From positions 1-5,468 of the forward strand of contig JAFGEY010000439.1 in NCBI GenBank assembly GCA_016931365.1: a DNA stretch of 5,468 bases, given 5' to 3'. This document shows, one piece after another, positions 59-5,468 of the stretch; the first letter of the stretch is position 1, and each line of letters starts with the position of its first letter. The notes beneath the pieces are model-generated. The model ran no database searches. It worked only from the letters and a program-made list of their open reading frames with translations, and was not told where the DNA came from. The stretch comes from Anaerolineae bacterium (GTDB lineage: Bacteria; Chloroflexota; Anaerolineae; JAFGEY01). Both the position numbers and the translations under genes were made by a program.

Positions 59-424
59 ATGCTCAACAGTATGCTAATCGAGGGCGTCGTCCTCAAGACC
101 TGGACCTACGCCGGCACCCCTTTCCTGCGCCTGGTCAACCGGCCCGACCCCGGCATCGACGGCGGCGATATGTTGGTCATTGCCCGCCTGCCCGGCACCG
201 TGCCGATCGGCCTGCGGCCGGGCGACCAGGTCAGGCTGCACGGGCGCTTCTTCAACCGGCGCAAAGAGGAGGGCAGCGACGACTATGTCGGCGAGATTCA
301 CGCCGAACGGGTCGTCCTTGTCGCCCGTAACCAGCTGCGCAAGCCGCGCGCCAATGGAGACAGAACCGGCAGCAGCGATGAGAATACTGCCACCGAGTAC
401 GAACTGGCCGAGCCGGTGATGTAA
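59..424 (+). CDS. Small OB-fold protein, SSB-like (hypothetical)
   Basis: A 121-residue soluble protein with no signal peptide or membrane segment. The ATG at 59 is chosen because AAGGAG at 47-52 lies six bases upstream; a second ATG at 71 has poorer spacing. Residues 5-27 (IEGVVLKTWTYAGTPFLRLVN) are hydrophobic and strand-like. Residues 54-65 (PGDQVRLHGRFF) and 77-89 (VGEIHAERVVLVA) repeat the 'GD.V...G......I.A..V.L' layout of the last strands of single-stranded-DNA-binding OB folds. The C-terminal 30 residues are polar and probably disordered. They are mildly acidic but lack the hydrophobic DDDIPF-type tip by which bacterial SSB recruits partners. At about 120 residues it is shorter than housekeeping SSB (roughly 150-180). 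It may be a plasmid or accessory nucleic-acid-binding OB protein. The gene is well supported; the function rests on fold pattern only. Codon choice is GC-rich (GCC, GGC, CTG), more so than in the operon to its right. Confidence 0.85.
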   Translation: MLNSMLIEGVVLKTWTYAGTPFLRLVNRPDPGIDGGDMLVIARLPGTVPIGLRPGDQVRLHGRFFNRRKEEGSDDYVGEIHAERVVLVARNQLRKPRANGDRTGSSDENTATEYELAEPVM

Positions 425-2711: not shown

Positions 2712-3461
2712 TCAAGCCCTTGGCGACCAGCGAAAGAGGCGAGCGGCGGCGATCCCGGCAACAAGCGTGTATGCGGCGGCGACCAACAGGCTTGGCCACA
2801 ATTCAGGGCCGAACGTTCCGTCCATCAATGGTGGGCGCACCAACTGCACGACTGCGTATGCCGGCAGGTAAGGAGCCACCCGGCGGATCCATTCGGGCAT
2901 CAACGTCATTGGCATCACCGTGTCGGTGATAAACATCTGGCTAAAATTGATAATCTGCCCGATAGCCACGGCCGTCCCGGCCGTGGGCGCGATCCCACTG
3001 ATCACCTGGCCCAGCGCCACACAGGTTACAATGCCAATCACCACCATCGGGAAAGCGCGCAACAGGCCAGCCAGAGTGAGCGGCACCTTGAAGGCCAGGG
3101 CAGAGAACGCGACAATGATCGCGCTTTGCAGCATGCCGATCAAGACGTTGACGATCAAGTAGCTGCCAACAAGCTGCACGGTTGGGATCGGGCTGGCTTG
3201 CAAGCGGCGCAGGATTCCTTTCTCGCGCATGGTGACCATCAGCGTGCCGCTGCTCAACAGGCCAAAGGCGACGATGTTGAACACCACCATGCCGGGCATC
3301 ACCCAGGTCATATAGCTTTCATCGCTGATGGTGTTCTTGCCAAAGATCTGGCTATAGATCACCAGCGTAAAGATGGGGAAAGCCAGATTCCAGAATAGCG
3401 TTGAACGGTTGCGCAGATGAATGAGCAGCATTGCTTTGGTGAGAACAAGAAAGCGCTTCAT
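2712..3461 (-). CDS. ABC-2 type transporter permease
   Basis: A 249-residue inner-membrane protein, normal length for a single-domain ABC-2 permease. Six hydrophobic segments are visible at about 22-40, 53-75, 98-124, 132-156, 160-180 and 221-243. The cytoplasmic stretch after the second segment reads MREKGILRRLQASPIP (about 78-93), the family's coupling element that contacts the ATPase. The PMTLMPEWIRRVAPYLPAYAVVQLVR stretch (about 184-209) matches the pre-final-helix region of drug and lipid exporters. AAGGA lies eight bases before the ATG, and the gene follows the ATPase with a 20-base gap, so the two form one transporter, probably as a homodimer of each subunit. Export is expected from the family. 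The substrate (antibiotic, peptide or lipid) is not readable. No frameshift or truncation is seen. Confidence 0.95.
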   Translation of the reverse strand: MKRFLVLTKAMLLIHLRNRSTLFWNLAFPIFTLVIYSQIFGKNTISDESYMTWVMPGMVVFNIVAFGLLSSGTLMVTMREKGILRRLQASPIPTVQLVGSYLIVNVLIGMLQSAIIVAFSALAFKVPLTLAGLLRAFPMVVIGIVTCVALGQVISGIAPTAGTAVAIGQIINFSQMFITDTVMPMTLMPEWIRRVAPYLPAYAVVQLVRPPLMDGTFGPELWPSLLVAAAYTLVAGIAAARLFRWSPRA

Positions 3462-3481: not shown

Positions 3482-4417
3482 TTAAGCACCGAGTTGCTTG
3501 CCGGTCAGCTTTAAGAATACGTCTTCCAGGTTCGGCTGTCGCAGCATCACATCGCCGATCGAGCGGCCAAGTTGAACTGCCAACCCTTGTAATGCAGATA
3601 GGGTGGCATGCGGCTGGGATGTTTCGATCTCCAGGTATTGTCCGGAATAGCGGGCCGTGTGAACGCCCGGCAAAGACTGCACCTGTTCCAACGGCGCATC
3701 CAGGCTGGTCTTGAGCACCGGGCTAGCCTCCAGCCCTGCGATCAACCGGGCAGGCGTGTCACAGGCGATGATCTTGCCGCCGTCAATGATCGCCACGCGC
3801 CCGCACAGCGCCTCTGCTTCTTCCATAGCATGGGTGGTGATGACGATCGTCCGCCCCTCATGATGCAACTGACGGATGATCCCCCAGATACTGCGCCGGG
3901 CGTGTGGATCGAGTGCCGAGGTCGGTTCGTCGAGCAGCACGATCTCCGGGTCATTGGCTATGGACAAAGCCAGGACCAGGCGTTGTTTTTGTCCGCCAGA
4001 AAGTCGTCGGGCCGGTACGTTGCGTTTTTCACTCAGATCAAATGATTCCAATATGTCCACGATCTGTCTCGTGTTCAGAAACACCTGATAGAGTCCGGCA
4101 TAGACCTCCACCAACTCAACGACAGTCAGATCATCCAAGAGGGCTGCGTGCTGGAGCTGGATGCCCAGCTTATGCTTGGTCAGTGAAGGATGGCGAGCCA
4201 CATCAATCCCGACGACTTGTACACTGCCGTGGGCGGACTTGTGCAGCCCCTCGACGCAGGACAAGAGCGTCGTCTTGCCGGCGCCGTTCGGCCCCAGGAG
4301 GCCAAAAATCTCGCCCGTTCGAATCTCCAGGTTCACACCTTGCAGAGCTTGCACCCGCTTTGTGCCGCGACCATACGACGCGAACAGGTCTACAATTTCA
4401 ATCGCAGTCTCATTCAT
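3482..4417 (-). CDS. ABC transporter ATP-binding protein (exporter, DrrA/CcmA-like)
   Basis: A 311-residue cytoplasmic ATPase that powers the adjacent permease. The ATG at 4417 is chosen because a strong GGAGGA lies five bases upstream; an ATG at 4444 would add nine residues and has no such site. Motifs in order: Walker A GPNGAGKTT (about 42-50, Lys48), Q-loop glutamine in GIQLQH (about Gln89), signature LSGGQ (about 139-143), Walker B IVLLDEP with catalytic Glu about 164, D-loop SALD, and H-loop ITTHAME (His about 196). All catalytic residues are intact. An extra C-terminal domain (about 230-311) ends NLEDVFLKLTGKQ, the tail typical of DrrA/DUF4162-type drug- and lipid-export ATPases; it accounts for the length beyond a bare 220-residue nucleotide-binding domain. 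It is the first gene of the operon. The gene and biochemical role are certain; the cargo is unknown. Confidence 0.97.
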   Translation of the reverse strand: MNETAIEIVDLFASYGRGTKRVQALQGVNLEIRTGEIFGLLGPNGAGKTTLLSCVEGLHKSAHGSVQVVGIDVARHPSLTKHKLGIQLQHAALLDDLTVVELVEVYAGLYQVFLNTRQIVDILESFDLSEKRNVPARRLSGGQKQRLVLALSIANDPEIVLLDEPTSALDPHARRSIWGIIRQLHHEGRTIVITTHAMEEAEALCGRVAIIDGGKIIACDTPARLIAGLEASPVLKTSLDAPLEQVQSLPGVHTARYSGQYLEIETSQPHATLSALQGLAVQLGRSIGDVMLRQPNLEDVFLKLTGKQLGA

Positions 4418-4422
4418 CTGTT

Positions 4423-4428
4423 TCCTCC
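4423..4428 (-). promoter_or_regulatory. Strong Shine-Dalgarno site of the ABC ATPase
   Basis: GGAGGA on the minus strand, five bases before ATG 4417, is the best ribosome-binding site of the operon and fixes the start of its first gene. Confidence 0.75.
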
Positions 4429-4442
4429 ATTCCACAATGAGC

Positions 4443-4459
4443 ACAACTGGTTCCGTTGT
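4443..4459 (-). promoter_or_regulatory. Inverted repeat at the operon leader, possible operator
   Basis: ACAAC (4443-4447) and GTTGT (4455-4459) form an inverted repeat with a 7-base centre. It lies between the proposed -10 box and the Shine-Dalgarno site, covering the expected start of transcription. A dimeric regulator could bind here, but an activator such as a NarL-type protein would more usually bind upstream of -35. The arms are only five bases each, so chance is possible. Confidence 0.3.
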
Positions 4460-4467
4460 ACGATTCT

Positions 4468-4473
4468 ATCATA
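4468..4473 (-). promoter_or_regulatory. Probable -10 box of the exporter/two-component operon
   Basis: TATGAT on the minus strand differs from TATAAT at one base and would start transcription near 4461, giving a leader of about 45 bases before ATG 4417. No good -35 sequence lies 16-18 bases upstream. This fits a promoter that needs an activator, as expected if the operon's own response regulator drives it. The call rests on sequence resemblance only. Confidence 0.4.
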
Positions 4474-4525
4474 CCTGATCGGCCTCGCGCTGCCCAGTCC
4501 CAAAGGATCGATCTGTCCTATGCCA

Positions 4526-4537
4526 TAGGGCCTATCC
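4526..4537. repeat. Left terminal inverted repeat
   Basis: TAGGGCCTATCC is the exact reverse complement of 4790-4801. It overlaps a local palindrome, CCTATG (4517-4522) with CATAGG (4524-4529), so the left end is a cluster of alternating CCTAT and ATAGG units. Confidence 0.7.
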
Positions 4538-4789
4538 AGCATGTGACGAAAGGCACAACCTGCGAGGAAGACATCAAGGGCAAACCGCTTCAAGAGAAGA
4601 ATCCCGATTCTGTGCAGGACTTTGGTGGCTTGTTTTGCCAAGGCGGTTTGCGCTGGGAATGTATTGACGACGTCGTCGTTGGCACAGAGAGCCATTTGTT
4701 TATCTCGAACGATTCGGACCTGAATGCAGATGCCTTGCATCCACCGGCTTGGCTGCTCAGAAGGATCGTTGCCCAGCAATGATCTTGGG

Positions 4790-4801
4790 GGATAGGCCCT
4801 A
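4790..4801. repeat. Right terminal inverted repeat
   Basis: GGATAGGCCCTA pairs exactly with 4526-4537. It lies 38 bases before the tRNA-like gene; the bases between include two T5 runs (4827-4831 and 4834-4838). Confidence 0.7.
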
Positions 4802-4839
4802 CCCATCTTCATCTGTCGCGCGCCCCTTTTTCGTTTTTG

Positions 4840-4927
4840 GTCGCGGTAGCTCAGGCAATGGTTGCCATTGCACGGTAGAGCGACCCGCTTCGGCGGGCAG
4901 TTCCGGGTTCGAGTCCCGGCCGCGACT
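4840..4927 (+). tRNA. tRNA-like gene with abnormal D-loop and anticodon arm (possible pseudo-tRNA)
   Basis: Acceptor strands GTCGCGG (4840-4846) and CCGCGAC (4920-4926) pair over 7 bp. TA follows at positions 8-9, then D-stem GCTC (4849-4852) with GAGC (4878-4881). The T-arm is perfect: CCGGG, loop TTCGAGT, CCCGG (4903-4919). Two parts are abnormal. The D-loop carries a 17-base insert (4855-4871), GCAATGG-TTG-CCATTGC, that folds into its own 7-bp hairpin; without it the loop is the canonical AGACGGTA. Where the anticodon arm should be, CCCGC-TTCG-GCGGG (4884-4897) forms a stem with a UUCG tetraloop, so there is no 7-base loop and no readable anticodon. The discriminator is T, and CCA is not encoded (CTG follows). 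It could be a decayed tRNA, a tRNA-like small RNA or a mimic. The tRNA ancestry is well supported; use in translation is doubtful. Confidence 0.6.
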
Positions 4928-4935
4928 CTGTACCG

Positions 4936-4952
4936 GCGACCGCAAAGGTCGC
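4936..4952 (+). terminator. Small hairpin after the tRNA-like gene
   Basis: GCGACC (4936-4941) and GGTCGC (4947-4952) form a 6-bp stem with a GCAAA loop, nine bases after the tRNA-like sequence. A short T4 run follows at 4958-4961. It could end the tRNA-like transcript, though the stem is short and the T-run is displaced. Confidence 0.4.
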
Positions 4953-5015
4953 AAGCATTTTCGTCAGCCATTTCATTCGGCGTTGACAAGGTTTTCGGCG
5001 ATAGAGGGAGCGTGT

Positions 5016-5468
5016 ATGACCCAAGACGAAGCGGTGAACGACACCGCCCAAGACAAGAGGACGCAACGGGCGCGCAGCGGACGGTGGATTATCGGCAAGG
5101 TGGACGATGGCTACCGGGTGATCAACCGTTCGACCGGGAGCTCACGGCAAGGCCGTGACAACGGTGGGCACGCCTACACCGTCACCCAGAGCGGCAGCGA
5201 GTGGGCCTGCGACTGCCCGGATTTCGAGCAGCGGCGGGGTCACTGCAAACACATCGAGGCTGTCCGGCTCTCGCTGGAAGGCGAAACACTGGACGTGCAG
5301 CCGCTAATCCGGGAGGACGAGAGCGGCATCCACGCCACTTTTCTGGATGGCGCGCAGATCTCACTGACCGTCGGCGGGCGCACAGCTTGCTCTCACTGCG
5401 GGCTGTCTCCGTGCGCGCATTTCAGCGCTGCCTTGCCTCACTACACCCGCTGGCTCAACGAACAGGCC
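5016..5468 (+). CDS. SWIM zinc-finger domain protein, 3' end outside window
   Basis: The frame is open from ATG 5016 to the window edge: 151 codons with no stop. GAGGGAG at 5004-5010 provides the ribosome-binding site. Residues 1-22 are polar. Residues 23-60 contain strand-like segments (RWIIGKVDDGYRVINRS, GHAYTVTQSG). The SWIM motif follows: C65-x-C67, nine residues, C77-x-H79 within ACDCPDFEQRRGHCKHIEAV, the usual CxC...CxH zinc ligand set. A second cluster, C125-x2-C128-x4-C133-x-H135 (ACSHCGLSPCAHF), could bind another metal ion. SWIM domains bind DNA or proteins and occur beside SWI2/SNF2 helicases, MuDR-type transposases and bacterial accessory regions. This protein has no visible enzymatic domain so far. 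Codon use is GC-rich like the OB-fold gene at the left edge. It may be an accessory nucleic-acid-binding protein; no specific role can be assigned. Confidence 0.88.
   Translation, partial: MTQDEAVNDTAQDKRTQRARSGRWIIGKVDDGYRVINRSTGSSRQGRDNGGHAYTVTQSGSEWACDCPDFEQRRGHCKHIEAVRLSLEGETLDVQPLIREDESGIHATFLDGAQISLTVGGRTACSHCGLSPCAHFSAALPHYTRWLNEQA

What the first reader, a model, noticed from the sequence alone, without database searches (positions are those of the whole stretch)
4840..4927. tRNA-like RNA with a hairpin inside the D-loop and a UUCG tetraloop in place of the anticodon loop
Seen directly: the acceptor, D-stem, D-loop consensus and T-arm are all intact, yet 17 bases forming a perfect 7-bp hairpin interrupt the D-loop (4855-4871). 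The anticodon arm is replaced by CCCGC-UUCG-GCGGG, an extra-stable tetraloop hairpin with no anticodon. Random decay normally erodes stems, whereas here all five stems pair perfectly. That suggests selection for a folded tRNA-shaped RNA that cannot decode. It might be a substrate for tRNA-processing enzymes, a regulatory mimic or an integration target.
Basis: seen in the sequence. Interest (0 to 1): 0.72.

Follow-up and report, generated by a model that had tools for sequence, protein, structure and literature searches.

The report
tRNA-like RNA with sealed anticodon arm
A bacterial DNA fragment carries a transfer-RNA-shaped gene whose decoding loop has closed into a very stable hairpin and whose D loop holds an extra hairpin; similar oddities turned up in viruses of bacteria, so it may be a tRNA mimic rather than a working tRNA, although a broken tRNA gene is not excluded.

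Summary
Bases 4840-4927 form a tRNA cloverleaf (Rfam tRNA, 41.3 bits, gathering score 29) with a perfect 7-bp hairpin in a 25-nt D loop and CCCGC-UUCG-GCGGG as anticodon arm; chance is unlikely. The host looks like Anaerolineae. No relative was found: 0 pattern matches in the species-genome collection, 0 of 400 Chloroflexota genomes, partial hits only in 6 of 120 Anaerolineae genomes, where an ordinary tRNA hits 119 of 120. Similar architecture occurs in unrelated viral contigs: expanded D loops with anticodon arms shut to 4-nt loops (GAAA, CUUG, UCCG, AAGA, AGGG), and a related form is conserved in Chaseviridae coliphages. D-loop hairpins covary in some phage tRNAs. Most likely: a tRNA-derived, non-decoding tRNA mimic of mobile origin. 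Main rival: a tRNA-Arg(UCG) pseudogene, since UUCG equals U33 plus anticodon UCG with one loop base missing; most viral short-arm families lack a perfect anticodon stem (70 of 98). The window copy is a singleton, so its hairpins could not be tested for covariation. Function is inferred.

The parts
4840..4846 (+). acceptor stem, 5' strand GTCGCGG (pairs with 4920-4926)
4849..4852 (+). D stem, 5' strand GCTC (pairs with GAGC 4878-4881)
   Evidence: pairing probability only 0.036 in RNAfold of the isolated RNA
4853..4877 (+). expanded 25-nt D loop, ending in the consensus GGTA
4855..4871 (+). extra hairpin inside the D loop, GCAATGG-TTG-CCATTGC, 7 pairs
   Evidence: 566 of 200,000 shuffles; pair probabilities 0.956-0.988
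4878..4881 (+). D stem, 3' strand GAGC
4884..4897 (+). anticodon-position arm CCCGC-UUCG-GCGGG; alternative register ACCCG-CUUCGG-CGGGC (4883-4898)
4898..4902 (+). variable region CAGTT
4903..4919 (+). T arm CCGGG-TTCGAGT-CCCGG
4920..4927 (+). acceptor 3' strand CCGCGAC and discriminator T; no encoded CCA (TCTG at 4927-4930)
5016..5468 (+). start of a SWIM zinc-finger protein gene 88 bases downstream on the same strand, cut by the window end; context only
   Evidence: Pfam PF04434 at 1.4e-5; four other relatives in a 5.8-billion-protein set

Best explanation
A tRNA-derived gene of mobile (phage-like) origin makes a tRNA-shaped RNA that no longer decodes. Shown: the acceptor, T arm and D-arm consensus are those of a tRNA, the D loop carries an extra hairpin, and the anticodon arm is closed by a C(UUCG)G tetraloop; the combination recurs in unrelated viral contigs. 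Inferred: the transcript is trimmed at both ends by the tRNA-processing enzymes (RNase P, RNase Z, CCA addition), which read acceptor stem, T arm and elbow and do not need an anticodon (recalled). Also inferred: it then acts as a tRNA mimic, binding tRNA enzymes or tRNA-targeting nucleases without being a translation substrate; with no open anticodon loop it would resist anticodon nucleases.
For: Rfam tRNA full-length match, 41.3 bits against gathering 29. All stems complementary; fold z -3.98; hairpins rare in shuffles. No ordinary tRNA closely resembles it in 120 Anaerolineae genomes (6 genomes with partial hits, best E 5e-4, longest 51 of 95 query bases), where a tRNA-Asn control hits 119 of 120, its own genome included. 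Anaerolineae tRNAs of this D/T motif: 138 matches in 79 of 120 genomes (my count), none with an expanded D loop or short anticodon arm. In viral contigs the combination recurs: L121 GAAA, L170 CUUG, L014 UCCG, L056 AAGA, L022 AGGG; L170, L056 and L121 also pass the Rfam tRNA gathering score (L014 and L022 were not given to it). In the loci, short anticodon regions occur in 7 of 16 expanded-D families and 1 of 28 normal-D families, Fisher p 0.0019. Of 13 viral families with a 5-bp stem and 4-nt loop, 4 have UNCG, GNRA or CUUG loops, p 0.003 (loop classes chosen after seeing some of them; window not counted). D-loop hairpins covary in presumed phage tRNA-Phe genes and between L071 and L073. A Chaseviridae element with an expanded D loop and a closed loop is conserved in 36 of 50,697 phage records, GenBank/RefSeq duplicates included.
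Against: The window copy is a singleton, so no covariation was seen in it. Of 98 viral families with short anticodon regions, 70 have no perfect 5-bp anticodon stem in my parse, so decayed or misparsed tRNAs are commoner than capped ones. Within those 98, capped arms are no commoner with expanded D loops (6 of 53) than with normal ones (7 of 45), so the two oddities need not belong together. RNAfold prefers another partner for the D stem. In 4400-5100 no consensus promoter or terminator was found on the + strand. There is no CCA. UUCG is also what tRNA-Arg(UCG) would leave after losing one loop base. The window shows no phage gene among the proteins searched (PHROGs on three of them), so phage origin is an inference from architecture.
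Confidence: 0.42

Rival explanations
1. A tRNA-Arg(UCG) pseudogene hit by two events: a 17-nt palindromic insertion in the D loop and loss of one base (38) from the anticodon loop. Stems look perfect because decay has only begun.
For: Rfam's register gives ACCCG-CUUCGG-CGGGC, i.e. C32-U33-UCG-G37 with one loop base missing and A27-C43 mismatched (position numbers mine). No CCA. ARAGORN cannot parse it properly. Decayed or misparsed short-arm tRNAs are common in viral contigs (70 of 98 families). A 276-bp stretch bounded by a 12-bp inverted repeat lies 38 bp upstream.
Against: No parent-like tRNA in 120 Anaerolineae genomes. Insert and arm both form perfect hairpins, rare in shuffles. Other unrelated families repeat the combination. 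A foreign or phage parent is not excluded.
Confidence: 0.36
2. A working but odd tRNA-Arg(UCG): the C32-G37 pair opens on the ribosome and the UCG anticodon is still read, as the Chaseviridae 'tRNA-Arg' genes may do.
For: Chaseviridae copies keep U33 and a purine at 37 while the triplet varies (UCG, UAG, AAG) and G32-C38 stays. Some presumed phage tRNA-Phe genes with D-loop hairpins keep a 7-nt loop, e.g. L021 CUGAACA.
Against: The window loop has 6 nt at most on a 4-bp stem and cannot form a 7-nt loop symmetrically, unlike Chaseviridae; its C(UUCG)G arm is very stable (pair probabilities 0.998-1.0).
Confidence: 0.1
3. A structured 5' leader or processing element of the SWIM gene 88 bases downstream, using tRNA-processing enzymes to cut the mRNA.
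For: Same strand, 88 bases apart; a 6-bp hairpin GCGACC-GCAAA-GGTCGC lies between.
Against: 15 loci with weakly similar SWIM genes from Anaerolineae show no tRNA by ARAGORN (29 matches were listed); only the zinc-motif region is shared, and ARAGORN handles such elements poorly.
Confidence: 0.07
4. An attachment site or integration scar of a mobile element.
For: tRNA genes are common integration sites (recalled); an inverted repeat lies just upstream.
Against: No integrase among the seven proteins searched, and no repeat of the tRNA 3' end in the 5.5-kb window.
Confidence: 0.05

Closest known systems
Ordinary bacterial tRNA (Rfam RF00005), nearest isotype by loop tRNA-Arg(UCG) (my reading)
   Same: Cloverleaf with 7-bp acceptor, 4-bp D stem, GG-TA D-loop consensus, 5-bp T arm with TTCGA; passes the gathering score
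   Different: 25-nt D loop with a 7-bp hairpin; anticodon loop of 4 (or 6) nt instead of 7; no CCA
'tRNA-Arg' of Chaseviridae phages (phiEcoM-GJ1, ST32 and relatives)
   Same: Expanded D loop (29-30 nt in most copies); anticodon region short; loop centre UUCG in 13 of 17 loci; in 36 phage records, duplicates included
   Different: D-loop pairing weak and one copy lacks six bases there; the loop closes as 5 nt but could open to 7 with U33; no sequence relationship to the window. PMC6266442 and PMC13340011 (passages) report it simply as tRNA-Arg; the phiEcoM-GJ1 record adds 'may contain an intron'
Capped tRNA-like genes in viral contigs (L121, L170, L014, L056, L022)
   Same: Complete tRNA body, expanded D loop, 4-nt anticodon-arm loops GAAA, CUUG, UCCG, AAGA, AGGG
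   Different: No evident sequence relationship to the window; L121, L170, L014 and L056 lie near other tRNA genes; four of the five are followed by CCA
Phage tRNAs with anticodon-loop changes proposed to evade tRNA nucleases (PMC10264068, passages)
   Same: Changed anticodon loops in phage tRNAs
   Different: The passages I saw describe base changes in the loop; none mentions shortened loops or D-loop insertions

Membership tests
tRNA (Rfam RF00005) | covariance-model score at or above gathering (29 bits) | tested here: met
   41.3 bits, model 1-71, 4840-4927; missed in the wider search
tRNA (Rfam RF00005) | 7-nt anticodon loop with U33 on a 5-bp stem | tested here: not met
   4-nt loop on 5 bp, or 6-nt loop on 4 bp
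tRNA (Rfam RF00005) | D loop of ordinary length | tested here: not met
   25 nt with a 7-bp hairpin
tRNA (Rfam RF00005) | aminoacylation and decoding | not testable with these tools
   needs biochemistry
tmRNA | tmRNA call by ARAGORN or Rfam | tested here: not met
   no tmRNA gene; none listed, where one lower-scoring match of the tRNA's clan was left out unseen
mascRNA-like tRNA mimic (RF01684) | gathering score 42.5 bits | tested here: not met
   19.9 bits
Chaseviridae 'tRNA-Arg' element | sequence homology | tested here: not met
   no phage record covers 80% of the element at E<=10, and no Chaseviridae record is among the 20 listed (136 more not listed)
loose set of capped, D-expanded viral tRNA-like genes | tRNA body, D loop of 18 nt or more, perfect 5-bp anticodon stem with a 4-nt loop | tested here: met
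   the set is defined by me, not by a published family
loose set of capped, D-expanded viral tRNA-like genes | lies in a phage genome or tRNA array | tested here: not met
   window genes are a two-component pair, an ABC-2 exporter and a SWIM protein; no other tRNA in the window
integration site of a mobile element | integrase and direct repeat of the tRNA end | tested here: inconclusive
   neither found in the window, but flanks are short

The most novel reading that the evidence does not exclude
There is an unnamed class of tRNA-shaped, non-decoding RNAs, mostly phage-encoded, in which the anticodon arm is sealed by a stable tetraloop and the D loop often carries an extra hairpin. They serve as cleavage-proof tRNA mimics, for instance decoys for tRNA-targeting defence enzymes, and the window is an example on a bacterial (Anaerolineae) fragment.
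Probability: 0.22. Interest if true: 0.75.

Novelty: new variant of a known kind. Interest (0 to 1): 0.45.

Why it matters
If it is functional, tRNA annotation of phages and mobile elements hides RNAs that keep every tRNA feature except the anticodon. Such RNAs would be natural probes of which tRNA enzymes, modification systems and tRNA-targeting defences need an anticodon at all. The Chaseviridae element, conserved in cultured coliphages, makes a related question testable in laboratory E. coli. If it is a pseudogene, it is still a warning that intact stems do not prove function.

Tried and rejected
Rejected: tRNA-Ala(tgc) (ARAGORN), because it ignores the GCTC/GAGC D stem that Rfam recovers. 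Rejected: 'no Rfam family', my reading; the narrower search gives tRNA at 41.3 bits. Rejected by inspection: a class II tRNA whose long variable arm is the UUCG hairpin, because the D-loop hairpin as anticodon arm would have G at 33 and leave too few bases for a D arm. Tried without profit: relatives of the SWIM protein in viral contigs (14 loci, zinc-motif region only), plasmids (no match) and 199 Anaerolineae genomes (27 genomes with weak hits, mainly to the zinc motif); the ORF at 59-424 in 199 genomes (2 weak hits); the UUCG pattern in 249 Anaerolineae genomes (0 matches) and in viral contigs (29 stretches; by my reading many are class II tRNAs with CTTCGG in the variable arm). One search spent a viral scan on an uninformative frame and was not used. 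Paper searches listed no paper that I recognised as describing tRNAs with both D-loop hairpins and closed anticodon loops; only open-licence PMC papers are held, and of six papers I read passages only. The first run of the association test counted tRNAs from scans selected for short arms; I replaced it with the loci only (stricter on the linker, gave 6 of 12 against 1 of 26 families, p 0.002). In one search one of 17 loci (L151) was missed by my extraction; its loop is.

Full report
What is there. The Rfam tRNA model matches 4840-4927 end to end at 41.3 bits; a search of the whole window had missed it. The fold is 4 standard deviations better than shuffles, and both hairpins are rare in shuffled sequence: 566 and 1,316 of 200,000. 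Against: folded alone, the RNA pairs GAGC with GUUC rather than with the D stem (probability of the D stem 0.036). RNAfold ignores the D-T tertiary contacts that hold real tRNAs (recalled).

Two readings of the anticodon arm. CCCGC-UUCG-GCGGG is a textbook stable hairpin (recalled). Rfam instead aligns ACCCG-CUUCGG-CGGGC: a tRNA-Arg(UCG)-like arm that has lost one loop base, with an A-C mismatch at the foot. The base pairs overlap almost completely, but the second reading says where the arm may come from.

Context. The permease at 2712-3461 has 439 relatives, 120 of them listed; the one organism name in the listing is an Anaerolineae bacterium, and three loci from Chloroflexi or Anaerolineae MAGs were fetched with it. 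The other genes are a response regulator, a histidine kinase, an ABC ATPase, a SWIM protein and an ORF at 59-424 without a family above cut-off. No phage family above weak scores was seen for the three window proteins given to PHROGs.

Is it known in cells? A pattern for an expanded D loop plus short anticodon region gave 0 stretches in the collection of 84,980 species genomes but 19 in viral contigs. A pattern with any anticodon-region length from 10 to 40 gave 0 of 400 genomes from the phylum of a Chloroflexi MAG; the pattern machinery was checked on the window and, with a freer D loop, on six records, five of which matched. In 120 genomes of the class of an Anaerolineae MAG the same D and T motifs with free spacing gave 138 matches in 79 genomes, all 55-58 bases long, i.e. 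normal. BLAST with the element gave one partial hit in each of 6 of 120 genomes; two lie in tRNA genes (Thr, Asn), one in a tRNA-Leu, three outside any tRNA call. The same search with an ordinary tRNA-Asn hit 119 of 120, its own genome included; that query has no insert, so it is the easier one. So this is not a fresh copy of a common native tRNA.

Viral parallels. Among 23 D-expanded tRNA-like genes (window included; seven of the rows are Chaseviridae), L121, L170, L014, L056 and L022 carry 4-nt loops on perfect stems; L048 can be drawn that way too but has an arm of ordinary length. L170, L056 and L121 pass Rfam's tRNA gathering score, as does phiEcoM-GJ1's element. In 36 phage records, GenBank/RefSeq duplicates included, all Chaseviridae in the 14 that I opened, an element annotated tRNA-Arg in some has an expanded D loop and an anticodon arm closed by G32-C38. 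In 14 distinct aligned sequences (flanks included; 16 of 17 loci extracted) the stems are constant except one acceptor G-U/G-C change, while the loop centre varies: UUCGA in 13 of 17 loci, UAAGA in 2, UUAGG in 2. Its D-loop pairing is weak and one copy lacks six bases there, so it supports the closed loop better than the D-loop hairpin. Presumed phage tRNA-Phe genes (GAA in the loop, my reading) carry D-loop hairpins; in L011, L036 and L046 the hairpin keeps seven pairs while three pairs change on both sides. L071 and L073 change GGAC/GTCC to GGGG/CCCC.

How strong is the pattern? Of 98 viral families with short anticodon regions (loci), 13 have a 5-bp stem with a 4-nt loop, 14 a 5-nt loop, 1 a longer loop, and 70 no 5-bp stem; capped arms are 6 of 53 expanded-D and 7 of 45 normal-D families; 4 of the 13 have UNCG, GNRA or CUUG loops, p 0.003. 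So capped arms exist and lean towards stable tetraloops, but decayed or misparsed arms are more common, and capping does not require an expanded D loop. That is why the pseudogene rival keeps 0.36.

Mechanism. Best supported: a tRNA-derived RNA that tRNA-processing enzymes would still accept (they read acceptor, T arm and elbow; recalled) and that cannot decode. What it then does is inferred. Mimicry or decoy of tRNA enzymes or tRNA-targeting defence is my first choice, because phage tRNAs are proposed to change anticodon loops to escape nucleases (PMC10264068, passages read). No experiment here bears on expression.

Verdict. Observation confirmed; interpretation partly supported; a new variant of a known kind, with the class-level parallel in phages the more interesting part.

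Noticed in passing
window 4526-4537 and 4790-4801: Perfect 12-bp inverted repeat TAGGGCCTATCC / GGATAGGCCCTA bounding 276 bp directly upstream of the element; may be a small transposon remnant. The ORF at 4456-4782 that spans most of it has no Pfam match.
   Followed up: partly
window 5016-5468: SWIM zinc-finger protein with only four other relatives in a 5.8-billion-protein search limited by query length.
   Followed up: partly
window 59-424: Small ORF upstream of the two-component/ABC operon; no Pfam family above cut-off and only two weak hits in 199 Anaerolineae genomes.
   Followed up: partly
window 4935-4952: Hairpin GCGACC-GCAAA-GGTCGC between the tRNA-like element and the SWIM gene, without a T run.
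   Followed up: no
L147 3013-3107 (phiEcoM-GJ1) and relatives: Chaseviridae 'tRNA-Arg' keeps its body but swaps the triplet at the anticodon position (UCG, UAG, AAG) while keeping U33, a purine at 37 and a G32-C38 closing pair.
   Followed up: partly
L009, L011, L013, L016, L021, L036, L046, L049, L050 and others: Presumed phage tRNA-Phe genes with a hairpin inside the D loop, covarying in some, several with UUCG as the hairpin loop.
   Followed up: partly
L351, L336, L353: Viral tRNA-like genes with a normal D loop but UUCG, GAAA or GAGA capping the anticodon arm.
   Followed up: partly
The Rfam search of the whole window at E<=1 missed a 41-bit tRNA match that a 401-base search found; wide searches may miss such elements.
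   Followed up: yes
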